A stretch of DNA of 51,769 nt, from the IMG/VR virus record IMGVR_UViG_3300034092_005013, positions 1 to 51,769 of that record. One strand, given 5' to 3'. This document shows positions 5,593 through 41,085 of the stretch, in pieces. Each line of letters opens with the position of its first letter. Position 1 is the first letter of the stretch. Source of the DNA: a virus. A model generated the notes under the pieces. It was not told the origin of the DNA. It worked only from the letters and a program-made list of their open reading frames with translations, and ran no database searches. A program made the position numbers and the translations under genes.

Positions 5593-6462
5593 TCACTTCT
5601 TAGGTGAATTTTTCCAAGACTTTTTGCTAGTCATGCATCTTGATTTCTTAGGCATTACCTTCATTTCTGTAGAATTGCAGTTACATTTCTTCGCTGGCTT
5701 TTTACTTACGGTCTTTTTGCCTTTTTTCTTTACAGGAACCTTCTTGCCCTTCTTGCTTGGAGTTTTATCTAAAACTTTTTTACCCTTTTTCTTTGCTTTT
5801 ATGTACTTAACAAACTGTGGCGGAATAGCACCTTCGTTAAGAATATCGCCATTCAATCTGCTGTTAATACGAGGATTAATGATTGAGTTAACGCTTTCAA
5901 GCCATTCCTGAAAATCGGGAGTGCTATCAAAAGTGCTAGTACTTTCTGCCTTCATGTATGAGCCACAATAACCACATTTTTTAGCAACAACCATTTTGCC
6001 ATGATCGTGAGGACTGTCTTCGTCTCCATCTTCAACAACTTCTACTTCGCCAGTCTCATCTTGCATGTCTACTTCATCTTCCATGTCATCTTCATCTTCT
6101 TCATCTTCTTCGTCATCTTCTTCGTGGTGATGATGACCTTCATGATCATCTTCTTCATCTTCCATGTCTTCTTCATCTTCGTCTTCATCTTCCATGTCTT
6201 CTTCATCTTCCATGTCTTCTTCATCTTCGTCTTCGTCTTCATCTTCCATGTCTACATCTACGTCTTCATCTTCGTCTTCATCTTCTTCTTCCATATCTTC
6301 TTCATCTTCCATATCTTCTTCATCTTCATCTTCCATGTCTTCATCTTCCATCTTCTCATGAAGAGGAGTGTAAGCCAAAAGTCCTTTTGGAGATGTTACT
6401 CTCATTGGGTTAGACATCATAAAGCTTTCATTGAGCTTTTTCCATTTTTCATAATTTAGCAT
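5593..6462 (-). CDS. Bipolar acidic/basic low-complexity protein, possibly packaged
   Basis: A 289-residue protein in three parts. The N-terminus is MLNYEKWKKLNE. A run from about residue 38 to 150 consists almost wholly of Asp, Glu and Met with a short histidine patch (GHHHHEED). After a CGYC...CNC pair of cysteine sites, the tail from about residue 223 is strongly lysine-rich (KAKKKGKKVLDKTPSKKGKK). Such a polyampholyte could bind DNA with its tail and mimic DNA or bind metal with its acidic part. The start has GGAG and fits the capsid-targeting-like N-terminus with L-N-E at 10-12. Replication slippage in the repeat could vary its length. Function unknown. Confidence 0.8.
   Translation of the reverse strand: MLNYEKWKKLNESFMMSNPMRVTSPKGLLAYTPLHEKMEDEDMEDEDEEDMEDEEDMEEEDEDEDEDVDVDMEDEDEDEDEEDMEDEEDMEDEDEDEEDMEDEEDDHEGHHHHEEDDEEDEEDEDDMEDEVDMQDETGEVEVVEDGDEDSPHDHGKMVVAKKCGYCGSYMKAESTSTFDSTPDFQEWLESVNSIINPRINSRLNGDILNEGAIPPQFVKYIKAKKKGKKVLDKTPSKKGKKVPVKKKGKKTVSKKPAKKCNCNSTEMKVMPKKSRCMTSKKSWKNSPKK
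6055..6356 (-). repeat. GAA/GAT-rich codon repeat of the acidic domain
   Basis: About 300 bp of imperfect tandem units reading TCTTCATCTTCCATG on the plus strand, encoding (E/D)n-M blocks. The unit length varies between 12 and 18 bp, typical of expansion by slippage. Open frames in other frames here (poly-Ser, poly-Phe/Val) are artefacts of the repeat. Confidence 0.8.
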
Positions 6463-6502
6463 GTTTATTCTCCAAAAAACTTGATTTTGTGTATATACTT
6501 AT

Positions 6503-6718
6503 TCAAATCATTTTTCCTAAAGATTTTCTTATAGATTCTCTTCTTTTCTTCTCAATTTCAAGACGATTTCTATCCATCCCGACAGGAGTAGTTTGTTCAG
6601 TTTGTATTTGTGGTTGATTATTGCCAGCAGATCGAACTATATTTTGTCTAATAGCTGGCTTAGCACCGTTCACGTTTCTTTGAGGTAAATTACCTTTTTT
6701 TCCGCATCCGCAAGCCAT
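6503..6718 (-). CDS. Small cysteine-started basic protein
   Basis: A 71-residue protein, MACGCGKKGNLPQRN at the start, a Gln/Asn-rich middle and a basic helix at the end (NRLEIEKKRRESIRKSLGKMI). A good AGGAGG precedes the ATG. The CGCGKK start recalls small zinc- or membrane-associated phage peptides, but no family is recognised. It sits just upstream of the acidic bipolar gene on the same strand (40-bp gap), so the two may share a transcript. Confidence 0.65.
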   Translation of the reverse strand: MACGCGKKGNLPQRNVNGAKPAIRQNIVRSAGNNQPQIQTEQTTPVGMDRNRLEIEKKRRESIRKSLGKMI

Positions 6719-6893
6719 AAGTCCTCCTGAAAAACCAGTGTAATTTAAATGATTTTCTCAACCTCTCTATCATATTTTTTAATACAATTTCTCTGGAGAC
6801 TCGTTTCTTGTTTCATTCAAAATATTTATTAATTTATTCCTCGATTTTAGAAATTGATCAAATTTCATTACACCTCATTTAACTATTATATAT
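6719..6893. promoter_or_regulatory. Divergent AT-rich intergenic region
   Basis: 175 bp between the minus-strand small basic gene and the plus-strand glycosyltransferase. The right end reads AACTATTATATAT directly before the ATG at 6894, without a Shine-Dalgarno, the TATA-plus-start arrangement seen at many other genes here. Nothing else clear is visible. Confidence 0.4.
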
Positions 6894-9437: not shown

Positions 9438-9656
9438 ATGAAAACATTTACAAATTGGGCTAGTGACAACAATCTCAGGATTCCAACTGTTAACGAAAAT
9501 GCTAAGCGTGGTGGTATCGCTCCTTATGCTTATCCAAGCCTTTATGCACGAGGTCAGTACACAGACGGTTACTTCTACCCAACTGCCGCTGACGCAGCAT
9601 TTAAACTACAAGCTACCAAGATTGCGAGAGGTGGTCCTAAAGAACTAGGGGCATAA
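9438..9656 (+). CDS. Small virion-type protein, paralogue 1
   Basis: A 72-residue protein, MKTFTNWASDNNLRIPTVNE at the start. Its body GGIAPYAYPSLYARGQYTDG-YFYPTAADAAFKL matches the next gene's GIAHWAYPDAYIRSHYPAG-YFMPTAADALFKM, so the two are tandem paralogues. The N-terminus fits the capsid-targeting-like pattern of T4 internal proteins (MKTYQEFIAE). A GGAG precedes the start and a TCTAAATAAG late-promoter-like element lies about 35 nt upstream. It is probably late and perhaps packaged; the biochemical role is unknown. Confidence 0.75.
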   Translation: MKTFTNWASDNNLRIPTVNENAKRGGIAPYAYPSLYARGQYTDGYFYPTAADAAFKLQATKIARGGPKELGA

Positions 9657-9658
9657 TA

Positions 9659-9889
9659 ATGAAATTTATTGAATATATAGAAAAGAGAGATTCAGATCTT
9701 TTTGAATCAATAAGAAGAACAGGGATAGCCCATTGGGCTTATCCCGATGCCTATATTCGTTCTCATTATCCTGCTGGTTATTTTATGCCTACAGCTGCTG
9801 ACGCTTTATTTAAGATGGGTCCAAAAGTTGATGATAGAAAAGTAGATCATGGTCAATTCAAATACACTCATCATGAAAGAATGGCTTAA
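9659..9889 (+). CDS. Small virion-type protein, paralogue 2
   Basis: A 76-residue paralogue of the preceding gene, starting two bases after its stop. The start MKFIEYIEKRDSDLFE has the same aromatic spacing and an L-F-E at 14-16 that would suit a prohead-protease site. The conserved core is GIAHWAYPDAYIRSHYPAGY and PTAADALFK. AGGGG lies 7 nt ahead of the ATG. The tail is His-rich (YTHHERMA). Function unknown. Confidence 0.75.
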   Translation: MKFIEYIEKRDSDLFESIRRTGIAHWAYPDAYIRSHYPAGYFMPTAADALFKMGPKVDDRKVDHGQFKYTHHERMA

Positions 9890-9892: not shown

Positions 9893-10237
9893 TTAAGGTG
9901 AAGGATTTAATTTTTTATTTAAAAGCTTTTTTCTTTCTTCTTCAATAACCGATCCTTGTTTTTTTGGAATAATGTCAAGATTGTTGTGATAATATCCCCA
10001 AAATTCACTATTTGATGGATTTTGGATAACTAATCCTGTTTTGTTGTATTTAAAAATTAATTCTTCTATTTTTTTGTCTGGAATATTTGTTTCTTTAGAT
10101 ATTGCGGAAACACTGCGCCAATTTTTATATTTCTTATTTCTTGTTAAGCTAATGAAAAATTTCTTCTCTTCTTCGCCTTCTAAAGTTCCTTGCGGATAAA
10201 TTTCGTACCATTCAGGCATTTTATTTTTGCTATTCAT
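9893..10237 (-). CDS. Hypothetical protein with winged-helix-like middle
   Basis: A 114-residue protein beginning MNSKNKMPEWYEIYPQG. The middle (KNWRSVSAISKETNIPDKKIEELIFKY) reads like a winged-helix recognition unit, which would suit a small regulator or assembly protein. I take the ATG at 10237 rather than an upstream in-frame one, because the longer form would run into the divergent gene. Only 15 bp separate it from the divergent start, so there is no Shine-Dalgarno and the message may be leaderless. Confidence 0.65.
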   Translation of the reverse strand: MNSKNKMPEWYEIYPQGTLEGEEEKKFFISLTRNKKYKNWRSVSAISKETNIPDKKIEELIFKYNKTGLVIQNPSNSEFWGYYHNNLDIIPKKQGSVIEEERKKLLNKKLNPSP

Positions 10238-10252
10238 GACTATTATATAGTT
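10238..10252. promoter_or_regulatory. Bidirectional TATA-like element between two start codons
   Basis: The 15-bp gap between divergent ATGs reads GACTATTATATAGTT. Read from either strand it has a TATA core placed 3-7 bp from a start codon. If a gp55-type sigma uses it as a late -10 element, both messages would begin at or next to the ATG. Confidence 0.45.
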
Positions 10253-10612
10253 ATGAACAATCCAGAACTGCATATTTTTGAAAATCATCATGACTATGAT
10301 TTGATGCTTCCCAAGCCTGCTCACAAAGGCTTAACAATTATAAAGCCAAGAGCAAAATTTGCTGCTGACAAAAGTTTTCAAGAATATGTCAAGGTTGGAA
10401 TGCTTAGGTATATTGGTCCTCATGTAAGAAAAGAGGTTATTGTGGAAAGTAAATTAATTCTTGATCAACCACCTGTTATTACAAATGAAGGTAAAGTGGA
10501 ACATGTTACTGTTGGTAAGAAGAAGCTTCTAAACGAAAATGAGGGTGAAGGTGCAGAACCAATCCTCCTTGTCGAAAGTCCAGCTTCTGGAATTAAAATT
10601 GTTACTGATTAA
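10253..10612 (+). CDS. Hypothetical protein
   Basis: A 119-residue protein (MNNPELHIFENHHDYDLMLPKPA at the start, quoted as MNNPELHIFENHHDYD), with a conserved-looking middle GMLRYIGPHVRKEVIVESK and an acidic tail (LLNENEGEGAEPILLVESPASG). No motif is recognised. It starts 15 bp from a divergent gene without a Shine-Dalgarno and ends with an 11-bp overlap with the convergent gene on its right. Location among neck genes suggests a late or virion-associated role only by context. Confidence 0.65.
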   Translation: MNNPELHIFENHHDYDLMLPKPAHKGLTIIKPRAKFAADKSFQEYVKVGMLRYIGPHVRKEVIVESKLILDQPPVITNEGKVEHVTVGKKKLLNENEGEGAEPILLVESPASGIKIVTD

Positions 10613-11051
10613 TTCTTAATTTTTTGAAACTAGGCACGAAACGATCTTTTTTGTCTTCCAAATTTTTCATTATGTCCCGCAATTTGTGGGACAAAATTTT
10701 TGCATTTATAGGATTTTCAAGAACATTTGTTTCTTCAACAGAAACAGTTTTATTAAGTTTATTGTAAAAACCTTTTGAAATAGTGAAATGGTCTTTTCCT
10801 TCGTTATAAGAAATCATCCCCACCCATTCACCATCATCCCAATTTCTAGAAGCAACAATTAATCTTAACGGATTTTCTGAAAACACTAATTTTACATGAT
10901 AATTCATTTTCTTCATAGCGGCGCTAATATAACCAAGCATAATCTTTGCGTAAGAAATTAAACAATCATCTTTAGTCGTATCAAAATTGACTTCAACAGA
11001 ATATCTTGAATTCTGTGATCCTTCATCAAATTTTTGATTTTTATTATTCAT
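10602..11051 (-). CDS. Hypothetical protein downstream of gp13-like neck gene
   Basis: A 149-residue protein, MNNKNQKFDEGSQNSRYSVE at the start, with alternating strands and charged residues and a basic C-terminus (DKKDRFVPSFKKLRINQ). The ATG at 11051 is preferred, since the in-frame upstream ATG would extend into the neck-protein gene. The gene begins 4 bp after the neck gene's stop, so they are co-transcribed. No family is recognised. Confidence 0.65.
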   Translation of the reverse strand: MNNKNQKFDEGSQNSRYSVEVNFDTTKDDCLISYAKIMLGYISAAMKKMNYHVKLVFSENPLRLIVASRNWDDGEWVGMISYNEGKDHFTISKGFYNKLNKTVSVEETNVLENPINAKILSHKLRDIMKNLEDKKDRFVPSFKKLRINQ

Positions 11052-11055
11052 TTTT

Positions 11056-11943
11056 TTATCCCATAGAAATATAAGGAATATCTCCATACCTGTTAATCAA
11101 TCTTTCTTCCCAATCTTTTTTCTCTTGGATTCCTTCAGTTATCAAATCCTTACCATCAAGTTGCACACCACCTTGAGCACCGGGTAAAGTAGTATACTTG
11201 CTTCTGATTCGACCAAGCATAATCTTTGCGTGAGCTAAAGCGCCTTCTTGCATTGCTTGGTTCACACGCTGCCAATCCTTGTTCTTTTGTATATAATGAA
11301 CAATAACCGCAACTGGACTTCTTGGAATTGGATAAAGTTTGATATTTTGATAATCGCCTAACCATTCCCAACCACCTAAATTACTAGCACTTCGAGCATA
11401 AGTTCTTTCGTATTCTTTATAAAGACTCCATTCCCCAACACGACCCCAAATAGGTGTCACAGAGTCAATCATGCCACCTGTAATTGATGCGTATGCGCCA
11501 CCGGGATAAAAATATTCAATAGGTATTGCCCCACCAAGATCAGACGAACTAAAACTAAATGTTGCCATTTGTTTGTAAAATACATTTCTAACAAAACCAA
11601 CATCAGGTGGTAATGTATAAATACTTTTACCGGGAACAGAATTAAACACATGATATTGAAAAAATTCTCTTGGTGCATAATCTTCGTAAATTTGCATGGA
11701 TAAATCAACAGCTGCATCTAATTGCTGACTATCAAGTTCAATAGTAACAACAGGCGCACCCAACATTAAAAGGATATAATCTCTTAATTGTGACTTAACT
11801 TTTGTCCTATTTGGTCTAGGACTCAATTCTCCAATATCTAAAGGATCAGAAACGCCAAGATTAAAATTATTTGTACTACAATTTTGCGACTCAGCAGTTG
11901 GTCGCTTAAAGTACATCGTATTTGAAGCACAAGAATTTCCCAT
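11056..11943 (-). CDS. Neck protein, gp13-like
   Basis: A 295-residue protein resembling the T4-type neck protein gp13, which with gp14 closes the filled head and joins it to the tail. The telling stretch is VKSQLRDYILLMLGAPVVTIE followed by LDSQQLDAAVDLSMQIYEDYAP (split here at the natural L), the gp13 N-terminal helical signature. Later come IYTLPPDVGFVRNVFY, a glycine/tyrosine-rich central region and GDIPYISMG at the end. Length is close to T4 gp13 (309 aa). TATATATATC stands just before the ATG with no Shine-Dalgarno. Neighbouring gp14-, gp15-, gp18- and gp19-like genes support the call. Confidence 0.68.
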   Translation of the reverse strand: MGNSCASNTMYFKRPTAESQNCSTNNFNLGVSDPLDIGELSPRPNRTKVKSQLRDYILLMLGAPVVTIELDSQQLDAAVDLSMQIYEDYAPREFFQYHVFNSVPGKSIYTLPPDVGFVRNVFYKQMATFSFSSSDLGGAIPIEYFYPGGAYASITGGMIDSVTPIWGRVGEWSLYKEYERTYARSASNLGGWEWLGDYQNIKLYPIPRSPVAVIVHYIQKNKDWQRVNQAMQEGALAHAKIMLGRIRSKYTTLPGAQGGVQLDGKDLITEGIQEKKDWEERLINRYGDIPYISMG

Positions 11944-11983
11944 GTTGATATATATAAAGAAAGAATAAAATTGAGGAAAATGT
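11944..11983. promoter_or_regulatory. Divergent late-promoter-like element
   Basis: The 40-bp gap contains GATATATATAAAG. On the minus strand its TATA core lies 5 bp before the neck-gene ATG; on the plus strand it is followed by TTGAGGAAAA, a Shine-Dalgarno for the gene at 11984. It probably serves both directions. Confidence 0.45.
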
Positions 11984-13978
11984 ATGAAACTTTTTAGTGA
12001 ATACTTTGCTGGACATATTAATCATGACTTTCATTTATTTGGCGATGATGATATGAAATTCCTTAAACAATTCCCAGCAAGACTATGGGAAAAGGCTATT
12101 GCTCAGCGTTATTGCGTTGATTTACCAACCGCTTTGTTAAAAAGAGAAGAAGCAAGAAGCAGACCTTTAGAAGGACTAAAAAACCCAAAAGGTAATCCTG
12201 TCCAATTAAATTATTATGACCTAATAAGATTCAGACAAGATATCATATTAGGCAATCTTGACCATCCTACAGGTGATACGGAAGAAGAAACAGTGAGAAT
12301 TCAAGATAGTGCTTATGATAATGCAAAAAATGCTGTCGATATGTTTTTATCCGAAAGACCAGATGGTGGTGGTGCATGGATGAATATAACATACGGAAGG
12401 ACTCTGTATACTTTTGCAAGAAGGCATAGACATAGCACTAATGAAGACAGTCATACAATAAGAAATAATTATATTGCAGAATTAGTTACAAGAATTGAAG
12501 GACCAAAAGGATCAAGTGACAGAGGATTTGACTTAAGCTCAATTAGTAATTTTGATCCTAGTATTCCAGATGATCAACAAGATGGTAGTTGGTATACAAA
12601 TGGTTTTACTTGTCCTGAAAAAGATCAAATTATAGAAAATTTGCAAAAATGGGTTGGTTTTTCAGCACAATCACTATTAAACGAACCAAGATCTATTGCA
12701 GATCAAGAAGCACATAGAATAAGACCAAGAACACGTTATTTGGCTGGTAGGGAGGCTGTTGACTTAGCAGACAAAGTAATTTATAAACCAGCTTTAACAA
12801 ATTATTACAAAGCTTATATCAACCGTCTAGAAAAAATGCTAGAAACAGAAGAAGGTATTGATCAAGCAAGTTTTAATTTTTTAAGAAATAAATTTAATTT
12901 AATGATTGAAACTCCAACAGGAACTGCCTATGCTTACCGATTCGCAATGTCAGGCAGATTTCCTGATGCTTTACAAAGAGTAATAGGAAATGAAGATGCT
13001 CATAATTTTACTGATGACCAATTAGAACAATTAATAACTATATGTTCAAATGTTCATAATCCTCTTGAAAGAGAATTGTCTACATCATTAGCCGACATAG
13101 ATCTTCTTAGTTATAAAATTGAAGGATATCATGGTAACGTAATTGATCCAGAAAAAGGAACAGAATTAACACATCCAAGTGAGCCAAATATTGACATAGA
13201 AGGGGATGTTATTCCAGAACTTCATAGTGGAAAAATTTTATTTAATATTGATGTTGCTAAAGCCAAATTAAGAGAAAAAATTGATGCTGCAAAAAAAGAA
13301 AATAACCCACAAATGGTTAGAACTTTAAGAGACCTTATTGCAAGGCTAGACAGAGAAAACGCAGTTGGACATCATTATAATGTTAGAGAAATTGCAGAAA
13401 AAGGTAAAAAAGGCAAAAAAAGGAAAAAAATATTTTATCAATTTTCAAATAGAGAATCTATTCCAGAAGAATTAGACAAAAGAGGTTTAACCATTGCTGG
13501 CGGTGTTCATCCTAATAGTAACTTTCAATTAGATGTTGGTGCAAGGTTAACTAACTTGAATAACAGTTTAAACCAATTAATGAGTTATTTAAATAATCGA
13601 CAAAATCATTTTGATGCATTTGTAAAAAGTTATATAAAAGGTAATTATAGAGGACCATATAACATAATATTTAAAACATTTGTCAATAATAATCAAGTAG
13701 TAACACATCCTCAAGCATATGAATTATTCAAAAAACTTATTAGAGACAAAGCATTAAGAAATATAGGAAAATTTGATATAGAAGAAGCAAATGAAGCAGA
13801 AACTTATAACATAATAGAAAGAACTTTAAGATTTTTGATTATGGATATATGTGATAGGCTTTCAGAGAAAAATTTGGGTTCATCAGGTACAAAAAAAACA
13901 AGAATTGGTCAGGCATCAAATGTAAATGCTGTCATGCAAAGAATGCAAGAAGCAATAAACGATACAATGAGAGGTTAA
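11984..13978 (+). CDS. Large protein of unknown function, possibly packaged in the head
   Basis: A 664-residue, charged, soluble protein. It starts MKLFSEYFAGHINHDFH, which fits the capsid-targeting-like pattern, and has no signal peptide or membrane segment. Landmarks are a Arg/His-rich stretch (YGRTLYTFARRHRHS), an acidic/helical centre (AKAKLREKIDAAKKENN), a lysine cluster (EKGKKGKKRKKIFYQFSNRE) and a helical C-terminus (VNAVMQRMQEAINDTMRG). Size and N-terminus recall T4 Alt (682 aa), but I see no ADP-ribosyltransferase motif. Neighbours are neck genes. Late expression is likely from the upstream TATA element and GAGG site. Confidence 0.7.
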   Translation: MKLFSEYFAGHINHDFHLFGDDDMKFLKQFPARLWEKAIAQRYCVDLPTALLKREEARSRPLEGLKNPKGNPVQLNYYDLIRFRQDIILGNLDHPTGDTEEETVRIQDSAYDNAKNAVDMFLSERPDGGGAWMNITYGRTLYTFARRHRHSTNEDSHTIRNNYIAELVTRIEGPKGSSDRGFDLSSISNFDPSIPDDQQDGSWYTNGFTCPEKDQIIENLQKWVGFSAQSLLNEPRSIADQEAHRIRPRTRYLAGREAVDLADKVIYKPALTNYYKAYINRLEKMLETEEGIDQASFNFLRNKFNLMIETPTGTAYAYRFAMSGRFPDALQRVIGNEDAHNFTDDQLEQLITICSNVHNPLERELSTSLADIDLLSYKIEGYHGNVIDPEKGTELTHPSEPNIDIEGDVIPELHSGKILFNIDVAKAKLREKIDAAKKENNPQMVRTLRDLIARLDRENAVGHHYNVREIAEKGKKGKKRKKIFYQFSNRESIPEELDKRGLTIAGGVHPNSNFQLDVGARLTNLNNSLNQLMSYLNNRQNHFDAFVKSYIKGNYRGPYNIIFKTFVNNNQVVTHPQAYELFKKLIRDKALRNIGKFDIEEANEAETYNIIERTLRFLIMDICDRLSEKNLGSSGTKKTRIGQASNVNAVMQRMQEAINDTMRG

Positions 13979-14574
13979 AAAGAAGGAGTGTTTCTAGCGA
14001 TTACACAAACAACTTTGTAACCACCGGGAACACTTTCAATTTCTTTTATTTCCCACCATCTTTTTGAGTCATCTTGTGGATAAAGAACAGAACCAACTGT
14101 TAGTTTGTCTAGCATTGTCCAAAAAATAAACGTAAAATCATTTAAAGACAAAACAATTGATTCAAATGTAAATTTTTCAACAAATTTCGTTTTAACAGCT
14201 ACGTCACCATAAAGACTATCTTTTTTTTCTTCCATTTTTGCTAAAGCACAATGTATAATTGTTTTTTCAAAATCTTCATATTCATTTTTTGTTTTTTGAA
14301 TAAATTTTGAATTTTCAGGAATAACAAGTTTTTTTTGATTGTTTTTTTCTGAAAGTTTAATTTCTGGCTTTTCTTCAATGATTTTTGGCTGTTCAGGAGG
14401 TTTTGATTCTTTCCTAGATCCTAATACAACATGCGGAATATTAGATTCTATTTTAAAGTTGGATAAATTTTTCAAATTATGAGTCGTAAATGCGCCCCAA
14501 TTGTCTTGGGTAAACATTAAAATGTTTGGTCCAGTCAATTTATAAACACTTCCATCTTTTTTGTACACTGCCAT
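13975..14574 (-). CDS. Hypothetical, probably virion-associated protein
   Basis: A 199-residue protein starting MAVYKKDGSVYKLTGPNILM. The start resembles that of the gp14-like protein at 15029 (IYKPDGKPF...TG), perhaps a shared N-terminal binding segment. A Pro/Glu/Lys-rich linker lies at about residues 55-90, then a folded region ending RWWEIKEIESVPGGYKVVCVIARNTP. TATATAGTC precedes the ATG with no Shine-Dalgarno. The stop overlaps the convergent gene by 4 bp. Function unknown. Confidence 0.65.
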   Translation of the reverse strand: MAVYKKDGSVYKLTGPNILMFTQDNWGAFTTHNLKNLSNFKIESNIPHVVLGSRKESKPPEQPKIIEEKPEIKLSEKNNQKKLVIPENSKFIQKTKNEYEDFEKTIIHCALAKMEEKKDSLYGDVAVKTKFVEKFTFESIVLSLNDFTFIFWTMLDKLTVGSVLYPQDDSKRWWEIKEIESVPGGYKVVCVIARNTPSF

Positions 14575-14609
14575 GACTATATATTATTAGTAAATAGAAG
14601 GAGAATTTT
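14575..14609. promoter_or_regulatory. Divergent late-promoter-like element
   Basis: GACTATATATTATTAG lies directly against the minus-strand ATG at 14574 and about 25 bp ahead of the plus-strand start, which has AAGGAG 7 nt before its ATG. The same GACTATAT core recurs at 10238 and 40249. Confidence 0.45.
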
Positions 14610-15017
14610 ATGGCTCTCGTAATACCAAATGTTAGCGAAGTTACCATTTTGAATAACATGCTTAATATAGCTACTCCCACAAATACAATTTTACATCTTT
14701 ATTCAAATAATTTAACACCAAGTTCCAATACTACAGTTGGAGATATTACTGAAGTGACATCAACAGGCTATTCTGCCATAACTCTTACTTCTTCAAGTTG
14801 GAGCGTTTCAACATCAGTTGGCGGAATTACTACAGCTAGTTATCCTGAACAAACATTCAATATGTCAACAAGTGCTACAATTTATGGATATTATGTAACA
14901 AACATAGCTGGTGGATTGCTTTGGTTAGAAAGATTTACTGCTGCTCCTTTCCAACTACCCAGTAGTGGCGGTCAAGTTCTTATCACATCTCAAATTTCTC
15001 TTAACAGTTGTGCTTAA
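14610..15017 (+). CDS. Putative virion structural protein
   Basis: A 135-residue protein rich in S, T, N and G with beta-strand periodicity (LTSSSWSVSTSVGGITTASY), no charged low-complexity parts and a C-terminus GGQVLITSQISLNSCA. It resembles small phage decoration, collar or fibre domains; its ending is similar to that of the protein at 2947-3465. AAGGAG precedes the ATG. It is followed at once by the gp14-like gene on the same strand, supporting a virion role. Confidence 0.65.
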   Translation: MALVIPNVSEVTILNNMLNIATPTNTILHLYSNNLTPSSNTTVGDITEVTSTGYSAITLTSSSWSVSTSVGGITTASYPEQTFNMSTSATIYGYYVTNIAGGLLWLERFTAAPFQLPSSGGQVLITSQISLNSCA

Positions 15018-15028
15018 AGGATTATATT

Positions 15029-15565
15029 ATGACAATATACAAACCTGATGGTAAACCGTTTTGTCCGACAGGAAGCTTGCAGCAATTTGATGACCAGAAT
15101 CCTGCAAGAGATTTATTTAATATTTACGATGAAGAAACGATTAGACTTGGTGGCTCTCCTTTATTTTACTTTGAATTATTTATTGACATAAACAACGTAG
15201 ATCCTTTGTATCTTGAGTCAAGAGCAAAGATTTACAGTCAAAATCCAATACAATTATGGTGCGTTTACGAACCAGTTCCATCACAAAATATGCAAACTGC
15301 ATTTGGTATTGATTCTCCAGATGAAATGACATTTGAATTAAATTATCGTGCAGTTTTGAAAGAAATTGGACATCCACCTAAGATTGGAAGTAGAGTTAAA
15401 ACTCCATTTCTTAATGAAGATTGGATCATTATTGAACGAAAATTAGGCGAGTTTAAACTATATAATGCATTGAGAATACAATTAGTTTGCCAAAGATTCC
15501 AAGAAGATACTGTTAGTGGAAGTTCTGTTGGCAAAACTGAAGATGCTGATTTTAAAATTGTTTAA
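15029..15565 (+). CDS. Neck protein, gp14-like
   Basis: A 178-residue protein with the layout of T4-type neck protein gp14, partner of gp13 in closing the head. Supporting stretches are DLFNIYDEETIRLGGSPLFY, then FGIDSPDEMTFELNYRAV, PPKIGSRVKTPF and ALRIQLVCQRFQED, which match the order of blocks in cyanophage and T4 gp14 (a YDE-type helix, an FGI-RDE-TF strand, then a plan-view of strands ending in a CxxF). It is shorter than T4 gp14 (256 aa). I choose the ATG at 15029 with AAAGGA 7 nt ahead over an in-frame GTG at 15008 inside the previous gene. Confidence 0.5.
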   Translation: MTIYKPDGKPFCPTGSLQQFDDQNPARDLFNIYDEETIRLGGSPLFYFELFIDINNVDPLYLESRAKIYSQNPIQLWCVYEPVPSQNMQTAFGIDSPDEMTFELNYRAVLKEIGHPPKIGSRVKTPFLNEDWIIIERKLGEFKLYNALRIQLVCQRFQEDTVSGSSVGKTEDADFKIV

Positions 15566-15591
15566 GATTTCATATTGATATAGGAGCAAAA

Positions 15592-16371
15592 ATGAAGACT
15601 TTTTTCGAAATGTACGACATTATGAAGATGAAGAGAAATAAGATTATGCAAGAACAAGGCAACATGGGTGGCGGTGGCATGGGCGGCAACATGGGTGGCG
15701 GCATGGGCGGCGGCATGGGCGGCAACATGGGTGGAGGCATGGGCGGTGGTAACATGGGCGGCAACATGGGTGGCGGCAACATGGGTGGCGGCAACATGGG
15801 TGGCGGCAACATGGGTGGTGGCAATTTTAATGCTAATTCTCAAATTCCTCAAGATCAGATGGGGAATTTTGATGCTCAAATGGGCGATGGTTCTAATCCT
15901 GCCGATACAGATGAATCAAATGTTGCTCCAAGCGAAGGTGGAGCAGATGAAGAAACAATTAAAAAATGTTTGCAAACTCTTAAAGATCAAGTTGAAAATT
16001 TTAAATCCGCAGATGAAGACAAAGGTCAGCAAATTGAGGACTTGATAAAGCAACTTGAAGACTTGATAAACAGCGTTATGGGTAATGATGAAGATGAGAA
16101 TGAAGACGAGGATGAGGATAAAGAAGAGGAAGATGAAAAGGGAGAAGGAAATAAAGGTAAAGAAAAATCGTCAAATGCAGGAGAAATGGGTGGTCCACCT
16201 ATGGGAGGCATGGAAAACATGAGTGGGGACCAAGGCGGCGGTAATCAGAGCGGTGGAGACATGGGTGGTGGCTTTGGCGGCGGCATGGGTGGCGGTGGCA
16301 TGGGCGGCGGCATGGGCGGCAGCGGTCAGGGTGGTGGCATGGGAGGTAGTGGCATGGGAGGCGGCTACTAA
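15592..16371 (+). CDS. Met-Gly repeat protein with acidic centre, possibly packaged
   Basis: A 259-residue low-complexity protein. Start: MKTFFEMYDIMKMKRNKIMQE, matching the capsid-targeting-like pattern. Residues about 24-80 are (N)MGGG repeats; then comes an acidic helical part (ETIKKCLQTLKDQVENFK and QIEDLIKQLEDLINSVM), an Asp/Glu/Lys-rich stretch, and a second Met-Gly domain to the C-terminus. An AGGAGC site precedes the ATG. The locally high GC content comes from the Gly codons. Flexible Met-Gly proteins could be scaffolding, head-interior or condensate-forming; none is demonstrated. A terminator lies after the stop. Confidence 0.8.
   Translation: MKTFFEMYDIMKMKRNKIMQEQGNMGGGGMGGNMGGGMGGGMGGNMGGGMGGGNMGGNMGGGNMGGGNMGGGNMGGGNFNANSQIPQDQMGNFDAQMGDGSNPADTDESNVAPSEGGADEETIKKCLQTLKDQVENFKSADEDKGQQIEDLIKQLEDLINSVMGNDEDENEDEDEDKEEEDEKGEGNKGKEKSSNAGEMGGPPMGGMENMSGDQGGGNQSGGDMGGGFGGGMGGGGMGGGMGGSGQGGGMGGSGMGGGY
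15661..15834 (+). repeat. Tandem ATGGGTGGCGGC(AAC) repeat
   Basis: Units of 9-15 bp, with several near-identical 15-mers AACATGGGTGGCGGC in a row towards the 3' end, encoding MGGG and NMGGG. A second, less regular block lies at 16188-16368 in the same gene. Poly-Pro, poly-Ala and poly-Trp frames on either strand here are shadows. Confidence 0.85.
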
Positions 16372-17204: not shown

Positions 17205-17249
17205 AACTTATTACAGTGAAAATTAAAACAAATAAGACTAAATAATTCT
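17205..17249. promoter_or_regulatory. Late-promoter-like element before gp15
   Basis: GACTAAATAATTCT stands directly before the ATG at 17250 with no Shine-Dalgarno between. The TAAATA core is close to the T4 late -10 consensus TATAAATA and its distance would put the transcript start at or near the ATG. Confidence 0.45.
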
Positions 17250-18248: not shown

Positions 18249-18472
18249 TAGAAATAACAAACATTTGCAAGCATCCAGTTCAACTTGTTATAAAGAGCAA
18301 GAAAAAAATAAATTCTTTTACAACTTTAAATATTCCGGGTATCGGATGTAAAAAAAATATTTATAATTTAGAAGATGAAAGGTCTACTGCATATATAGAA
18401 AGAGTAGAAAAAATGGGTCTTATCAAGACTAGATATGTACCAAATAATATTTTGACTGAGGGAGAAAAGTAA
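18245..18472 (+). CDS. Small conserved-position protein between gp15 and sheath
   Basis: A 75-residue protein whose ATGA overlaps the end of gp15 by 4 bp and whose stop is one base before the sheath start codon. It begins MIEITNICKHPVQLVIKSKKK and ends RYVPNNILTEGEK; compact and basic, one predicted beta-rich domain, no membrane segment. The placement in the tail operon suggests a tail-assembly role. No family is recognised. Confidence 0.7.
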   Translation: MIEITNICKHPVQLVIKSKKKINSFTTLNIPGIGCKKNIYNLEDERSTAYIERVEKMGLIKTRYVPNNILTEGEK

Positions 18473-18473
18473 A

Positions 18474-20861: not shown

Positions 20862-20885
20862 TTAAAGAAAAACAAGGGAGGATTA

Positions 20886-21545: not shown

Positions 21546-21560
21546 AGGATAAAATCGATT

Positions 21561-22486: not shown

Positions 22487-22975
22487 TCAAATTCTTTTAA
22501 TAGGAATTTCTCTACTTATCTTTGCAAAGTAAAATTCTTGATATCTTTTCTTAAGTTCTTCGAAATTTTTGTTTGATCTGTAAATTTGTCTTAAGTGATG
22601 TATTAGGCATGTGGTTAAAAAATTAAATGCTTTACTTCCACGATGTGGATCAAACCGTTCGATTTTAGAAAAACATATAAATACGCCTTCTTGCACAGCG
22701 TCATCGTAATCAATTTTTTGAAAATTTCTAAATCGAACGATATTTTCTGCTAAAGTGAAAAATTCTTTTGCCAAATTATCTTGACTTTGTTTTAATATTT
22801 TTTCATTTTGAATAATTTTATCCTCATCTAGTTGTAGGGTAATTTTATCAGTATTCTTTTTATGGATTTCGTAATCTTGACGAAACAATTCATATTTTCT
22901 TTTATTCTTTTTAGCTTGTTGGAAATCTATAATGTTTTTTTCAAGGTATTTGTTATCAAGATAATGGTTACTCAT
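22487..22975 (-). CDS. Late-transcription sigma factor, gp55-like
   Basis: A 162-residue divergent sigma70-family factor that would direct host RNA polymerase to late promoters. The diagnostic block is IDYDDAVQEGVFICFSKIER, then FDPHRGSKAFNFLTTCLIHH and LRQIYRSNKNFEELKKRY, the sigma region 2-like core of T4 gp55. The start is taken as MSNHYLDNKYLEKN at 22975: a longer reading to 23134 would overlap the divergent gene by 137 bp. ACTATATTTCTAAT stands before the ATG with no Shine-Dalgarno, so the gene may itself be late or leaderless. Small and helical, length close to T4 gp55 (185 aa). Confidence 0.85.
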   Translation of the reverse strand: MSNHYLDNKYLEKNIIDFQQAKKNKRKYELFRQDYEIHKKNTDKITLQLDEDKIIQNEKILKQSQDNLAKEFFTLAENIVRFRNFQKIDYDDAVQEGVFICFSKIERFDPHRGSKAFNFLTTCLIHHLRQIYRSNKNFEELKKRYQEFYFAKISREIPIKRI

Positions 22976-22997
22976 ATTAGAAATATAGTGTGAATCT

Positions 22998-23765
22998 ATG
23001 AAAATAAATTGTGCAATCATAGTTGATTCTTTAGAAGAAAAAGAAATATGTGTGAATAAATTCTCACATATAGCAAATAAATCTTTTTTTACTTTTGACA
23101 AAACAATTAAATCTTTGAACTTATTAAAAAGCAAAAGAAATATTTTTCCTGAATTAGAATTGTTCTATGAAGGTGAATTCTTTTTCTTATTGTATCCAGA
23201 TGAAGAAATTCTTTTTTGGGATGAAGAAGAGATATTTAAATCTCATCACAATCTAATTGTGGATAAATGGATAGTTAAGACGAAAAGAAGCAACGCTAAA
23301 ATTCCAGAAGTTTCTAAAATATTTATAAAGAGTTCTTTTACCAATGTGAAAAGGTTTGATGAAGAATGGTGTAATTTATATTTGCCCAAAGGAAACTTGT
23401 TAGTAAAATTACAAGAATATATTTTCTCTAATGACATTGAATTAAACGAATTATTTATAATCTATCAATATGTATTTGAAAAATTAAAAGCAAGCCATCA
23501 TAATCAAGAGCTTATAGACTTGATCAATTCTATAATTGAAAAATATCCTTCTTTTATAGAATTGATCAACTTGTGGGGAGATTACTTATATGAAATGAAT
23601 CTTTTTATGGATGCAAAAATATATTATGAAAAAGCTTTAGAAATGGCATTTCATAGAGATATTTATGACTTTATGCCAATGATTCCAAGCATGCATAAAA
23701 ATCATCCTAATAAAATGCTATCTAACATAAAAACATTAATATTAAAGTATGATACGATGATATAA
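22998..23765 (+). CDS. Hypothetical TPR-like protein
   Basis: A 255-residue protein divergent from gp55 across 22 bp. It starts MKINCAIIVDSLEEKE. The middle has acidic/aromatic stretches (YPDEEILFWDEEEIFK); the C-terminal third has helical-repeat character (LINLWGDYLYEMNLFMDAKIYYEKALEMAF, quoted as LWGDYLYEMNLFMDAK and YYEKALEMAF), like a TPR unit. No Shine-Dalgarno is seen before the ATG. It abuts the next convergent gene (1-bp spacing). Function unknown. Confidence 0.65.
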   Translation: MKINCAIIVDSLEEKEICVNKFSHIANKSFFTFDKTIKSLNLLKSKRNIFPELELFYEGEFFFLLYPDEEILFWDEEEIFKSHHNLIVDKWIVKTKRSNAKIPEVSKIFIKSSFTNVKRFDEEWCNLYLPKGNLLVKLQEYIFSNDIELNELFIIYQYVFEKLKASHHNQELIDLINSIIEKYPSFIELINLWGDYLYEMNLFMDAKIYYEKALEMAFHRDIYDFMPMIPSMHKNHPNKMLSNIKTLILKYDTMI

Positions 23766-31147: not shown

Positions 31148-31630
31148 TTATTTTTGTGGATATTGTGCTGTAGGAGCAGCAGCAGAGGTATCAAAACCAC
31201 TTGCTGGAGGATTATCTGGTGCTATATCCTGACCTGATACATCTTTAGGAGTTTCCATTTCTTTTGGTTTTTCTGTAATTTGGAAAGCGTTAATAGGAAC
31301 TCCCATTTTATTAACGACTTTCTGCAAAGTGTCAATTGTACTTTTTAAGACTTCTTCTATATTATCATTTTCATCTATAGACTTTGCGAGAGAAACAGCA
31401 CATTTTTGTAATCCTTTAAGAAATTTTCTATTTTCATTGCCCCAGTGACCTTGAAGAATGCCTCTAGATTTGTTTACAATAATTTGTGCATAACGAACTA
31501 AGTTTCTTGTACCAATTTTATTTACTTCGTCCGAAAGTTCTTGTGAAGAATTAAGGACATCACCAATTTCTTTGGCTAAGTAAACTTTGTTTTCGTTTAA
31601 AACGAATTCTCTAAAATTAAAGTCTGTCAT
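31148..31630 (-). CDS. Small virion-type protein with a capsid-targeting-like N-terminus
   Basis: A 160-residue protein starting MTDFNFREFVLNENKVYLAKE, with an L-N-E at 11-13 that fits a prohead-protease site. The centre is helical (LVRYAQIIVNKSRGILQGHW) and the C-terminal third is Pro/Ala/Gly-rich (DNPPASGFDTSAAAPTAQYP). AATAAATAGAAAT stands directly before the ATG with no Shine-Dalgarno. The next gene (amidotransferase) begins 19 bp after its stop. Late expression and packaging are inferences from the N-terminus and start region. Confidence 0.65.
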   Translation of the reverse strand: MTDFNFREFVLNENKVYLAKEIGDVLNSSQELSDEVNKIGTRNLVRYAQIIVNKSRGILQGHWGNENRKFLKGLQKCAVSLAKSIDENDNIEEVLKSTIDTLQKVVNKMGVPINAFQITEKPKEMETPKDVSGQDIAPDNPPASGFDTSAAAPTAQYPQK

Positions 31631-31665
31631 ATTTCTATTTATTAATAAAGTATCAAATGTTTTTT

Positions 31666-37427: not shown

Positions 37428-37802
37428 TTATGTGTAAGGTTCAAGCTTATCTTTTCGCTTAATTTTGCCTTCAAAATATTTTTCGAGAAGATCCCAAGCA
37501 TTTAGTTTGTTAATGTCTGTAATGACGGCTGTTGGAGCACCACCTGTTGCTCCAACACCAATTCCACCACCAAGATCTGCACCCAAACTTGAAGGTGGGG
37601 GAGGAGTTGCTCCACCTAATGACCCGCCAAGGCTACCACCTAGACCACCTAAGTCAGATGGTGGTGCTCCTCCGGGTGGTGGTGTTGCTCCTCCTAAAGC
37701 TCCTCCCGGTGGTGCCGCACCTCCACTAGAGGATGCTCCACCAGCTGGAGCATCTGCTTCAGTTAAAAATTTTTTTCTTCTAAATTGATGAATTGTGATC
37801 AT
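37428..37802 (-). CDS. Gly/Pro/Ala-rich protein with a capsid-targeting-like N-terminus
   Basis: A 124-residue protein starting MITIHQFRRKKFLTEADAP; L-T-E at 13-15 fits a prohead-protease cleavage site. Residues about 20-88 are Gly/Pro/Ala/Ser repeats (GGATPPPGGAPPSDLGG), then a short folded end (INKLNAWDLLEKYFEGKIKRKDK). ATATATTTTGT stands directly before the ATG, without a Shine-Dalgarno. It lies beside the gp47 gene but probably has its own late promoter. Function unknown. Confidence 0.7.
   Translation of the reverse strand: MITIHQFRRKKFLTEADAPAGGASSSGGAAPPGGALGGATPPPGGAPPSDLGGLGGSLGGSLGGATPPPPSSLGADLGGGIGVGATGGAPTAVITDINKLNAWDLLEKYFEGKIKRKDKLEPYT
37545..37742 (-). repeat. GGTGGT/CCACCA-rich repeat
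   Basis: Imperfect GGA/GGT/CCA/CCT codon repeats encoding the Gly/Pro/Ala-rich middle of the minus-strand protein. Open frames on the plus strand here are shadows. Confidence 0.7.
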
Positions 37803-37820: not shown

Positions 37821-38300
37821 ATGAAAACATTTTGGGAATATTTAAATAATGATCAACCGGATGCTCTACGAATAACTGAGCGTCCTGTTCCACAACCGCA
37901 AGCAGTTGCGCCAGTTGCAATTAATGCGAATGCAGACCCTGTAAATCACACTGTAGCTGTTCCGCAGCCAGCAGAAACCGGATTCAGATCAAAAGTAAAA
38001 CCTTGGAAAGCGAAGAAAAGTCAAATTATGACTTTTTGGAAAGCTTTAGCTCCTAATATACCTTTACAATTGCAGCCTATTGAGCAAATTCATAAAGGTA
38101 GTACTTTACAACAAGATACATTTAGGCTCACAGGAAGCAAAGAATTTATTACAACTGTACTGTCTAGATTGAAAGATTTTGTGATTTATGAAAATCCAGA
38201 AACAAAATTAGTTTTAGATTATAGACAAAATGCTAAAAGCCTAAAACCGGGAGAAAAAAATAGTTATTTATTTTACTTAAATGTCCGCAAGAGGAAATAA
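37821..38300 (+). CDS. Small virion-type protein with a capsid-targeting-like N-terminus
   Basis: A 159-residue protein starting MKTFWEYLNNDQPDALRITE, the closest match in the window to T4 MKTYQEFIAE, with I-T-E at 18-20. A Pro/Ala/Val-rich linker follows (PVPQPQAVAPVAINANADPV), then a basic folded domain (FRLTGSKEFITTVLSRLKDF...FYLNVRKRK). An in-frame ATG at 37785 lies inside the divergent gene and is rejected. The end overlaps the convergent gene by 24 bp. It is probably late; the folded domain is not recognised. Confidence 0.7.
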   Translation: MKTFWEYLNNDQPDALRITERPVPQPQAVAPVAINANADPVNHTVAVPQPAETGFRSKVKPWKAKKSQIMTFWKALAPNIPLQLQPIEQIHKGSTLQQDTFRLTGSKEFITTVLSRLKDFVIYENPETKLVLDYRQNAKSLKPGEKNSYLFYLNVRKRK

Positions 38301-38441: not shown

Positions 38442-38482
38442 AATAAAATCTCCAAAAAGAACATTTCTATGTATAAAAGATC

Positions 38483-38511: not shown

Positions 38512-38556
38512 TTAGCATGAAGGTTATGACTTGATAATAGTTTTTAAGAGGTAAAA

Positions 38557-39975
38557 ATGGCGACTACAATTACAATTAACAATGATTTCTGTCAATTGCA
38601 AACTGATAATCAAGAAATGTTAAAATACATTATTCTTAATTTAAAATTTAGACAAAAAGGTTATCAATTCACACCTCTTTATAAATCTAAGAAGTGGGAT
38701 GGATTTGTTAACTTTTTTTCAGCAAAAACAGGAAAATTTCTTACCGGAATATTACCAGAAATTTGTATGATTGTAAAAAAGTTCAATGAATCATATGATC
38801 TTAGTGATTTAAGAATACCAATTAAATTTAAATTCGATAAAATTGATGAACATTTTTTACAATATTACAACGAAGATATGAACACTAAAATCGAATTAAC
38901 AGATTATCAAGTTGACCTAGTAAACCAAGCGATCAAACACAAACGTGGAATTATTGTTGCTCCTACCGCTTCTGGGAAAACATTCCTTATGTCTGCTCTC
39001 TTAAAGGCTTTAGGAGAACATGAACCGACTTTAGTTTTGCAAAACAGAAAGTCTTTAGCTTCTCAGAATTTTGATGAAATTTCTAGATGGGGATTTAAAA
39101 ATATTGGTTCTTGTTGGGGTGGAAACAATAATCCAAATAAAATAACTGTTGCTACTGCGCAATCAATTCATCATTTGGAAGACAAGCTTGATAGCATAAG
39201 AGTTCTTATTGTAGATGAAGTTCATGATATGGTATCTGATACAGCTAAAGAAATATACAAAAAGATGAAAAATACAGTCATAAGGATAGGTTTGTCGGCA
39301 ACACCGTTTAAGCATGGTGAAACAGACAAGGTACACAAATATCTTGTCAAAGGATTCTTCGGTCCAATAATCAAGACGACTACAACTTCCACAGGAAGAG
39401 TAACGACAGCAGACTTACAACAAAAAGGCAGATTATCTCAGTCAAAATGCTTGTTTTACAAAATATGTGAACCTGATCTTTCCTTATCAATCTATAGTGA
39501 AGCTATAGATCTTGGTATTGTCAACAATTTAACTTTACATAATAAAGTTGTTGAATTGACAAATGCGTTTTCTGGCAGAACATTAATTTTAGTAGACAGA
39601 ATTGCGCATGGTGATCAATTGAAAAAAATGATCCCAACCGCTTATTGGATCACAGGAAAAGACGATAATGATTCTAGAAAAGAAGTAATTAATATGTTAC
39701 AAAGTTCTAAAACTAGTTGTATAGCAATTGCTACTCAACAAATATTCAACACTGGTATCAATGTTAAAATTCACAATTTAATTAATGCTGCTGGTGGGCA
39801 AGCTGATCATTTAATTATTCAAAGAATGGGTCGTGGATTAAGAACAGCTGATGACAAAAAAGAAGTTACTTACATTGATTTTATGTTTGAAAACAATCCT
39901 TACTTGAAAAAGCATTCTGCAAAAAGAGTTAGAATTTTGGAGAAGGAAGGTCACTCTCTTCAGTTTTTCGATTGA
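38557..39975 (+). CDS. uvsW: DNA/RNA helicase, UvsW-like (superfamily 2)
   Basis: A 472-residue SF2 helicase. An N-terminal domain (KWDGFVNFFSAKTGKFLTGI) is followed by TDYQVDLVNQAI, Walker A VAPTASGKTFLM (about residues 134-145), LIVDEVHDMVSD (DEVH box), IGLSATPFKH (motif III), a ATQQIFNTGINVK block and IIQRMGRGLRTADDKKEV (motif VI, arginine finger). T4 UvsW (503 aa) unwinds R-loops and branched DNA, shutting down origin use and helping recombination-dependent replication. Its 3' end overlaps the convergent gene by 47 bp. Confidence 0.92.
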   Translation: MATTITINNDFCQLQTDNQEMLKYIILNLKFRQKGYQFTPLYKSKKWDGFVNFFSAKTGKFLTGILPEICMIVKKFNESYDLSDLRIPIKFKFDKIDEHFLQYYNEDMNTKIELTDYQVDLVNQAIKHKRGIIVAPTASGKTFLMSALLKALGEHEPTLVLQNRKSLASQNFDEISRWGFKNIGSCWGGNNNPNKITVATAQSIHHLEDKLDSIRVLIVDEVHDMVSDTAKEIYKKMKNTVIRIGLSATPFKHGETDKVHKYLVKGFFGPIIKTTTTSTGRVTTADLQQKGRLSQSKCLFYKICEPDLSLSIYSEAIDLGIVNNLTLHNKVVELTNAFSGRTLILVDRIAHGDQLKKMIPTAYWITGKDDNDSRKEVINMLQSSKTSCIAIATQQIFNTGINVKIHNLINAAGGQADHLIIQRMGRGLRTADDKKEVTYIDFMFENNPYLKKHSAKRVRILEKEGHSLQFFD

Positions 39976-40246
39976 CAACATTGTAAAAAGCATTAAATAA
40001 ATCATTTAACGTAGATGATGGTTTACCAATAATACTTTTTATCATTGCCTTGTCTTCCTTGCTCATTTGATCATATTTACTCCAACTTTTCAATCGAGTC
40101 TTTATCTTTTCAATATCAAGCTTGGATAGGTTGATAGTAAATCCTTGATCATTATCAATATTTAATTGTAATTGATTTTTAAAAGCATTTTTTTTAACTT
40201 CTTTTTCATTTTCTGTAGCTTCTAAAAATTGTATGAAAGTAATCAT
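39929..40246 (-). CDS. Small protein with a capsid-targeting-like N-terminus
   Basis: A 105-residue protein starting MITFIQFLEATENEKEVKKN. The centre is charged and helical (LDIEKIKTRLKSWSKYDQMS); the end contains NDLFNAFYNVVNRKTEESD. TATATAGTCAT stands directly before the ATG and no Shine-Dalgarno is present. The gene shares 47 bp with the convergent UvsW gene, an unusually long overlap here. Function unknown; a late, possibly packaged product by analogy with the other proteins that start this way. Confidence 0.65.
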   Translation of the reverse strand: MITFIQFLEATENEKEVKKNAFKNQLQLNIDNDQGFTINLSKLDIEKIKTRLKSWSKYDQMSKEDKAMIKSIIGKPSSTLNDLFNAFYNVVNRKTEESDLPSPKF

Positions 40247-40275
40247 ATGACTATATAGATTTATGGAGAATTTTT
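40247..40275. promoter_or_regulatory. Divergent late-promoter-like element
   Basis: ATGACTATATAGATTTATGGAG: the TATATA core at 40252-40257 lies 5 bp from the minus-strand ATG and about 18 bp from the plus-strand ATG, where TGGAG is the ribosome site. The same GACTATAT core occurs at 10238 and 14575. Confidence 0.5.
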
Positions 40276-41085
40276 ATGAAGTTTACTGAATGGGTTGGTA
40301 AATCACCTGATGTTGTTTTCGGTTTTGACAAAGTTGTTTCTACTAAAGGTCAGCTTCGTTATAACGAAGAACCAGTAGAACCTTTAAAAATCGAAACTGT
40401 TTTAGATGAAATAATCAATTTAGGTAAAATAGGAATAAAAGAACCTGTTAAAGATTTTGGATCTATGATTAATTATGGAGACAGTAATCAAGTCGGGTCA
40501 ATTCGTCTTAAATTTAGTCCTCTTGGTTCTTGTCGTGTAACGATAATGAGAAGAATTAGTGATTTGGAAGGTGAATTAACTTGGGTTACTCGTTATTCTA
40601 TTCCTGTTGTTAATGATTACGAACATATGACTGTAGAAGACATTGCTGTTGAAAAAATGTTAGCTACTAGGATTTTTGAATTGGCTGAATATATTGATAA
40701 AACGGCTTTGGAAACGCCCAAACAAAAATATGATTCGCTTGAAGAATTAGTAATTATGCTTGCTATGAATATGAAATTAAAGCATCCAAAAGTAATGAGT
40801 TACCAAGGTGTGATAAAAGAAAACATTAATACATATATCATATATTTTTCGTATCATGGTTTAGGTCTTGAAGCTCCCGGTCAAAGAAAAGTGAATCAAT
40901 TTAATATTTATGTAGAATTTATCAAACACAAAGGGTTAATTCGATGTTGGGGTGCCGAATATTCTGCTCCTCACTTGCTCTATAATTATGAACCTCAGAC
41001 CCCTGAATGGGACGAATATTTTAGCGTAGATCAGAATAAAAATGAGATTACAACAATTATTGAAAATATATTTAAAACTTATTGA
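40276..41085 (+). CDS. Hypothetical protein with a capsid-targeting-like N-terminus
   Basis: A 269-residue protein, MKFTEWVGKSPDVVFGFDKV at the start, then alternating strands and helices (GSIRLKFSPLGSCRVTIMRR), a mid-region helix (VEKMLATRIFELAEYIDK) and an aromatic C-terminal domain (IRCWGAEYSAPHLLYNYEPQ). The N-terminal aromatic spacing fits the group described at 37821, though no L/I-x-E site is near. The stop overlaps the convergent gene by 7 bp. No family is recognised. Confidence 0.65.
   Translation: MKFTEWVGKSPDVVFGFDKVVSTKGQLRYNEEPVEPLKIETVLDEIINLGKIGIKEPVKDFGSMINYGDSNQVGSIRLKFSPLGSCRVTIMRRISDLEGELTWVTRYSIPVVNDYEHMTVEDIAVEKMLATRIFELAEYIDKTALETPKQKYDSLEELVIMLAMNMKLKHPKVMSYQGVIKENINTYIIYFSYHGLGLEAPGQRKVNQFNIYVEFIKHKGLIRCWGAEYSAPHLLYNYEPQTPEWDEYFSVDQNKNEITTIIENIFKTY

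What the first reader, a model, noticed from the sequence alone, without database searches (positions are those of the whole stretch)
5593..40276. A family of unrelated proteins sharing a T4 internal-protein-like N-terminus
Seen: N-termini MKTFTNW, MKFIEYI, MKLFSEYF, MKTFFEMY, MKTFWEYL, MKFTEWV, MLNYEKW, MITFIQF, MITIHQF, MTDFNFREF at 9438, 9659, 11984, 15592, 37821, 40276, 6462(-), 40246(-), 37802(-), 31630(-). Their bodies are unrelated. Five have L/I-x-E within the first 20 residues: L-N-E, L-F-E, L-N-E, L-T-E, I-T-E. Known: T4 internal proteins start MKTYQEFIAE, a capsid-targeting signal cut by the gp21 protease after (L/I)xE. Inference: these are packaged, injected proteins, a hidden effector set.
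Basis: partly seen in the sequence, partly recalled or inferred. Interest (0 to 1): 0.82.

Follow-up and report, generated by a model that had tools for sequence, protein, structure and literature searches.

The report
Capsid-packing tags across a huge phage
This fragment of an uncultured giant bacterial virus, and its relatives, put the same short N-terminal "pack me into the head" tag on dozens of otherwise unrelated proteins, including likely enzymes, so the proteins such viruses probably carry in their heads can be read from sequence.

Summary
The N-termini are real and far commoner than chance: 8 of 64 window genes match aromatic-x-x-aromatic versus 1.15 expected. Those two positions are the known targeting residues of T4 internal protein IPIII. 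A profile trained on other huge phages, with the window's families left out, gives p<=0.003 for seven of the ten proteins and p~0.03-0.04 for three. It ranks T4's IPIII, IPII and IPI 2nd-4th of 253 T4 genes. About 5-13% of genes in most related contigs carry the tag, on 145 body families; a held-out 595-kb phage gives 40 of 606 versus 1.6 expected. A gp21-type (L/I)xE cut motif follows in 52% of tagged versus 16% of untagged families. Late-type promoter boxes abut 28% versus 2.6%. Relatives encode gp21 and gp23 in T4 order with tagged genes beside them. Best reading: T4-type capsid-targeting sequences, greatly expanded. Packaging, cleavage and injection are inferred, not shown. Corrections: 9438 and 9659 are paralogues; the I-T-E of 37821 is not conserved; some tagged proteins are probably prohead-core parts, not effectors.

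The parts
6427..6462 (-). N-terminal tag MLNYEKWKKLNE of the 289-aa acidic/His-rich, Lys-tailed protein 5593-6462; predicted cut after LNE|S
   Evidence: profile p=0.0005; same-tag LNES/INES counterparts in relatives
9438..9497 (+). N-terminal tag MKTFTNWASDNNLRIPTVNE of the 72-aa protein 9438-9656; possible cut after VNE
   Evidence: profile p=0.0010; all homologues keep MKTFxxW-type starts
9659..9706 (+). N-terminal tag MKFIEYIEKRDSDLFE of the 76-aa protein 9659-9889, paralogue of 9438; predicted cut after LFE|S
   Evidence: profile p=0.0005; (L/I)xE kept in close relatives
11984..12007 (+). weak tag MKLFSEYF of the 664-aa protein 11984-13978; no near (L/I)xE
   Evidence: profile p=0.041; distant homologues, some with tag-like starts
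15592..15654 (+). weak tag MKTFFEMYDIMKMKRNKIMQE of the Gly/Met-rich protein 15592-16371
   Evidence: profile p=0.027; similar tagged low-complexity proteins in relatives, homology not shown
31592..31630 (-). N-terminal tag MTDFNFREFVLNE of the 160-aa protein 31148-31630; predicted cut after LNE|N
   Evidence: profile p=0.0001; F6 and E13 invariant in 12 homologues
31636..31641 (-). TAAATA box starting 11 nt before the 31630- start codon, no Shine-Dalgarno: predicted leaderless late promoter
   Evidence: sequence; class enrichment
37758..37802 (-). weak tag MITIHQFRRKKFLTE of the Pro/Gly-rich protein 37428-37802; predicted cut after LTE|A
   Evidence: profile p=0.027; G022 orthologue tagged with IIE; similar tagged proteins near gp47 and in LR756511
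37809..37814 (.). palindromic TATATA midway (6 nt each side) between the divergent start codons of 37802- and 37821+: predicted bidirectional late promoter
   Evidence: sequence
37821..37880 (+). N-terminal tag MKTFWEYLNNDQPDALRITE of the 159-aa protein 37821-38300; tag conserved, I-T-E not conserved, variable linker follows
   Evidence: profile p=0.0003; alignment
40223..40246 (-). N-terminal tag MITFIQFL of the 105-aa protein 39929-40246; no clear (L/I)xE
   Evidence: profile p=0.0002; G017 homologue MTRFSKWLEW
40252..40257 (.). palindromic TATATA (within ATGACTATATAGTCAT) 11 nt before the 40246- start, facing 40276+
   Evidence: sequence
40276..40296 (+). N-terminal tag MKFTEWV of the 269-aa protein 40276-41085; no (L/I)xE nearby
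   Evidence: profile p=0.0031; tag retained in the homologues aligned
22487..23134 (-). gp55-like late sigma factor, the candidate reader of the late boxes
   Evidence: PHROG late sigma factor E=1.8e-7

Best explanation
The shared N-termini are T4-type capsid-targeting sequences. Late in infection the tagged proteins are made from gp55-type late promoters. The tag, M-x(1-2)-F-x-x-W/F/Y-L, docks the protein on the prohead scaffold core. In many of them the gp21-type prohead protease then cuts after (L/I)-x-E, most often 8 residues past the first aromatic, releasing the body inside the head before DNA packaging, to be ejected with the DNA at the next infection. Shown: the tag, its enrichment, its match to the known T4 targeting and cut residues, its conservation, the promoter link, and gp21 with T4-like head gene order in relatives. 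Inferred: packaging, cleavage and injection. The bodies are probably a mix of prohead-core parts and injected host-takeover or counter-defence proteins.
For: Tag positions equal the T4 IPIII targeting residues 4 and 7; enrichment; held-out profile on the window and on LR756511, 40/606 vs 1.6 expected, p=8e-42; profile recovers T4 ipIII, ipII, ipI at ranks 2-4 of 253. (L/I)xE after the tag 52% vs 16% of families, p=5e-17, peaking at +8, other P3 classes at background. Abutting late boxes 28% vs 2.6%, p=4e-20. gp21 in 8 of 24 relatives, gp23 adjacent, tagged genes beside gp21 in T4-like order. Conserved LNE-type motifs in gp21 and gp23. Tag and E13 conserved in 31630- homologues. Codon use in the tag follows genome GC, so selection is on the protein.
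Against: No virion data for this clade. gp21 of the window phage itself was not found (fragment). 40276, 40246- and 11984 lack a clear cut site, and that of 37821 is not conserved. T4 Alt, a known packaged protein, is not recognised by the profile. Enrichment is absent or not significant in some phages with gp21-type proteases (SP-15, S-PM2) and absent from the immuto stretch. Three of the ten window proteins fit only weakly.
Confidence: 0.83

Rival explanations
1. The tag docks proteins on another late virion part (portal, neck or tail lumen) or on an assembly membrane, so the proteins are structural parts rather than head cargo.
For: Late promoters also mark structural genes; some tagged genes sit beside portal and gp21.
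Against: The profile recovers proven head-interior proteins of T4; the cut motif has the prohead protease's specificity; window sheath, tube, gp15 and neck proteins lack the tag.
Confidence: 0.1
2. The N-terminal pattern comes from selection on the start of the mRNA (translation initiation, leaderless starts), not on the protein.
For: Many tagged genes have abutting promoters and no Shine-Dalgarno.
Against: Third-position GC in the tag follows each genome from 33% to 56% GC; Trp is strongly enriched; tags also occur on genes with a Shine-Dalgarno.
Confidence: 0.02
3. Chance resemblance or common descent of a few genes, picked out by eye.
For: 9438 and 9659 are paralogues; three of ten fit weakly.
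Against: Held-out profiles and a held-out genome (p=8e-42); family-collapsed tests; 145 body families carry the tag.
Confidence: 0.03

Closest known systems
T4 internal proteins IPI, IPII, IPIII and their capsid-targeting sequence (Tequatrovirus)
   Same: Same aromatic-x-x-aromatic-L/I tag, (L/I)xE cut motif, gp21 family protease, unrelated bodies behind one tag
   Different: Dozens of tagged genes per genome instead of about three; W preferred at the second aromatic; cut peak at +8 instead of +6 from the first aromatic; late boxes abutting the start codon; bodies with enzyme-like domains
T4 Alt
   Same: Packaged, gp21-processed, injected enzyme
   Different: Alt's N-terminus is not recognised by the tag profile (rank 211 of 253)
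phiKZ / SPN3US inner-body and ejection proteins
   Same: Giant phages that package and inject proteins trimmed by a gp21-related protease
   Different: Propeptides there are mostly over 100 residues in SPN3US and the motifs are S/A/G-x-E or A-x-E; the tag pattern is not enriched in phiKZ

Membership tests
T4-type capsid-targeting sequence (CTS) | Aromatic residues at the T4 targeting positions near the N-terminus, more often than chance | tested here: met
T4-type capsid-targeting sequence (CTS) | (L/I)xE processing site shortly after the tag | tested here: met
   Met for the class and for 6462-, 9659, 31630- and 37802-; not met for 40276, 40246- and 11984; not conserved in 37821
T4-type capsid-targeting sequence (CTS) | Phage encodes a gp21-type (S77) prohead protease | tested here: inconclusive
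   Found in relatives at E 1e-26 to 1e-29; not in the 91 kb held of the window phage
T4-type capsid-targeting sequence (CTS) | Profile recognises proven CTS proteins | tested here: met
   T4 ipIII, ipII, ipI at ranks 2-4 of 253
T4-type capsid-targeting sequence (CTS) | Late expression | tested here: met
   Late-type boxes enriched 15-fold in odds; by sequence only
T4-type capsid-targeting sequence (CTS) | Protein found in the head, N-terminus cut | not testable with these tools
   Needs virion proteomics
T4 internal proteins | Injected into the host and active there | not testable with these tools
   Needs experiment; some bodies match counter-defence-like domains
phiKZ-type inner-body proteins | (S/A/G)xE cut motif | tested here: not met
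   Small P3 residues at background: 20% vs 18%

The most novel reading that the evidence does not exclude
A clade of uncultured huge phages uses a generic N-terminal head-loading tag on up to about 50 genes per genome to load a large injected proteome, including counter-defence and metabolic enzymes, and pairs the tag with leaderless late transcription, so cargo genes move as ready-made promoter-tag-body cassettes.
Probability: 0.45. Interest if true: 0.9.

Novelty: new variant of a known kind. Interest (0 to 1): 0.76.

Why it matters
Most genes of huge phages have no known role. If the tag means 'packed into the head', it turns part of that dark set into a defined list: proteins delivered in the first moments of infection, when host defence must be disarmed. 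It predicts candidate cargo in sequenced huge phages without culturing, suggests a candidate overlooked packaged peptide in T4 itself (gene 61.1), and gives new tags to test for loading proteins into phage heads.

Tried and rejected
Nucleotide-level explanation: rejected by third-position codon use across 33-56% GC. Chance: rejected by held-out tests. phiKZ-type motif: rejected. Pfam and PHROGs on the ten window proteins gave nothing of use. Structure of 40276: good core (pLDDT 75) but no convincing PDB match; the 37821 model is too poor to use. Looked for virion mass-spectrometry support in cultured jumbo phages: CBB has published virion data but its first 50 kb shows no notable tag enrichment (one gene versus 0.2 expected); Atu_ph07's protein list is in a supplement I could not read. 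gp21 was sought on twelve further contigs, mostly close relatives of the window phage: none found, all fragments. My first gp21/core motif count selected for the motif; it was redone without that bias.

Full report
WHERE IT IS. The window is a 51.8-kb virus record. Family searches found a contractile sheath, two tube proteins, gp15- and neck-like proteins, a gp55-like late sigma factor, UvsX, a DnaB-type helicase and a single-strand-binding protein. A 91-kb IMG/VR record (G001) is the same phage at 99.93% identity. Relatives include contigs of 223, 343, 381 and 532 kb and the public 595-kb uncultured phage LR756511, so this is a lineage of huge T4-related myophages.

THE OBSERVATION. All ten N-termini are at the stated places. 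I fixed the pattern from T4 experiments rather than from the window: for T4 IPIII (MKTYQEFIAE) amber-suppressor work put targeting mainly at residues 4 and 7 and processing at residues 8 and 10 (PMC9026906 section 2.6). Genes starting M-x(1-2)-[FY]-x-x-[FWY] number 8 of 64 in the window versus 1.15 expected from internal sequence and 15 of 108 in G001 versus 2.05, and are about 3- to 8-fold enriched in six other huge-phage contigs; the small G007 contig has none among 22 genes. T4 and pelagiphage HTVC008M are enriched about 3-fold; SPO1, SP-15 and phiKZ are not. A position profile trained on other phages, without any family found in G001, gives p<=0.003 for seven of the ten window proteins and 0.03-0.04 for three. 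Applied to T4, this profile puts annotated ipIII, ipII and ipI at ranks 2, 3 and 4 of 253 genes. On 400 kb of LR756511, never used in training, it finds 40 of 606 genes versus 1.6 expected; that phage does share some families with the training set.

THE CUT SITE. Selecting tags only on positions -1 to +4 around the first aromatic and taking one protein per family, (L/I)xE follows at +6 to +18 in 60 of 116 (52%) against 194 of 1226 (16%) untagged families (p=5e-17); the peak is at +8. The same proteins 40 residues further on give 16%. V/M, small, polar and aromatic residues at P3 are at background. This is gp21's published specificity, not the S/A/G-x-E of phiKZ. In the window, E13 of 31630- is invariant in 12 homologues; the (L/I)xE of 9659 is kept in the close relatives; 6462- has LNES or INES counterparts at the same tag in relatives, and 37802- has (L/I)xE-bearing counterparts. 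The I-T-E of 37821 is not conserved: there the tag is kept and a variable linker follows. 11984, 40246- and 40276 have no clear site.

THE MACHINERY. gp21 (PF03420) is found in 8 of 24 related records, E 1e-26 to 1e-29 in most, with gp23 nearby. The order is portal-position protein, small divergent tagged gene, ~600-aa protein starting MKRKLISF(D/E)xF, gp21, scaffold-position protein, gp23, as in T4; portal and scaffold are assigned by position only. In the gp21 loci fetched from viral contigs, all 77 readable capsid proteins carry FLNEA near the start and all 80 proteases keep an (L/M)(N/S)E near the N-terminus. The window phage's own gp21 lies outside the sequence held.

LATE EXPRESSION. A TA(A/T/C)ATA box starting 9-12 nt before the start codon occurs at 28% of tagged families and 2.6% of untagged (p=4e-20). 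Genes with such a box mostly lack a Shine-Dalgarno (8 of 101 versus 1168 of 1900), and several of the untagged ones are structural genes. LR756511 repeats it at 15 of 36 versus 15 of 478. T4's TAAATA boxes peak near 28-35 nt upstream. In T4 the late box is centred near -10 (general knowledge), so transcription here would start at or next to the start codon: leaderless late mRNAs, an inference. In the window 31630- and 40246- have such boxes, and 37802-/37821+ share one palindromic TATATA exactly midway.

CARGO. Comparing bodies without the first 20 residues, 204 tagged proteins from nine contigs fall in 145 families. Most have no Pfam match; the rest include NUDIX, C39 peptidase, a 2H phosphoesterase overlapping anti-CBASS Acb1 (E=3e-9), an AAA_33 kinase-like domain, poly(A) polymerase/CCA type, radical SAM, UvrD-like helicase and a phospholipase-like domain. 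Some bodies occur with and without the tag (2H and NUDIX families), as expected for a portable tag, although gene-start errors could contribute. Of the window's replication and tail genes tested, only the primase scores above background.

ALTERNATIVES. Selection on RNA is very unlikely: third positions in the tag follow each genome's GC from 33% to 56%. A dock elsewhere in the virion remains possible at about 10%. Not all packaged proteins use the tag, since T4 Alt is missed, and phages with a gp21-type protease need not show significant enrichment: S-PM2 and SP-15, the immuto stretch and the part of CBB examined.

NOVELTY. One tag on unrelated internal proteins is known for T-even phages, where it has been used to find ip genes, and IPI-III inhibit distinct Type IV restriction enzymes (PMC12373910). 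In the open-access papers I could search I found no report of it in huge phages, nor of its pairing with abutting late promoters; preprints and most subscription papers were not searchable. I rate it a new variant of a known kind.

Noticed in passing
Window 10237-/10253+, 37802-/37821+, 40246-/40276+; relatives: Late-type boxes abut start codons without Shine-Dalgarno (predicted leaderless late mRNAs), and several divergent gene pairs share a palindromic TA box between start codons only 15-29 nt apart.
   Followed up: partly
G021 58177, 351378, 453543, 517826; G016 46037, 177745; G019 107087: Short pieces matching different slices of the gp23 capsid profile are scattered far from the complete gp23 gene in huge-phage contigs.
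   Followed up: no
T4 NC_000866 18966-19130 (-): T4 gene 61.1 (54 aa, unknown function, MKTFKEFIKEDMVAG) ranks first of 253 T4 genes with the huge-phage tag profile, above ipIII, ipII and ipI.
   Followed up: partly
G001 10099-21558 (L067, L068), outside the window: Eight further tagged genes cluster in about 11 kb of the same phage, perhaps a cargo island.
   Followed up: no
Window 5593-6462 (-): The body of this tagged protein is a long Asp/Glu-rich stretch with a His cluster followed by a Lys-rich tail; unusual composition, role unknown.
   Followed up: no
Synechococcus phage S-PM2 78328-79506 (gp22): The annotated scaffold gp22 itself has a tag-like N-terminus (KFEEFASE, score 7.5).
   Followed up: no
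Window 4597-5529 (+): COOH.NH2 ligase-like gene (PHROG, E=1e-50) next to the first tagged gene.
   Followed up: no
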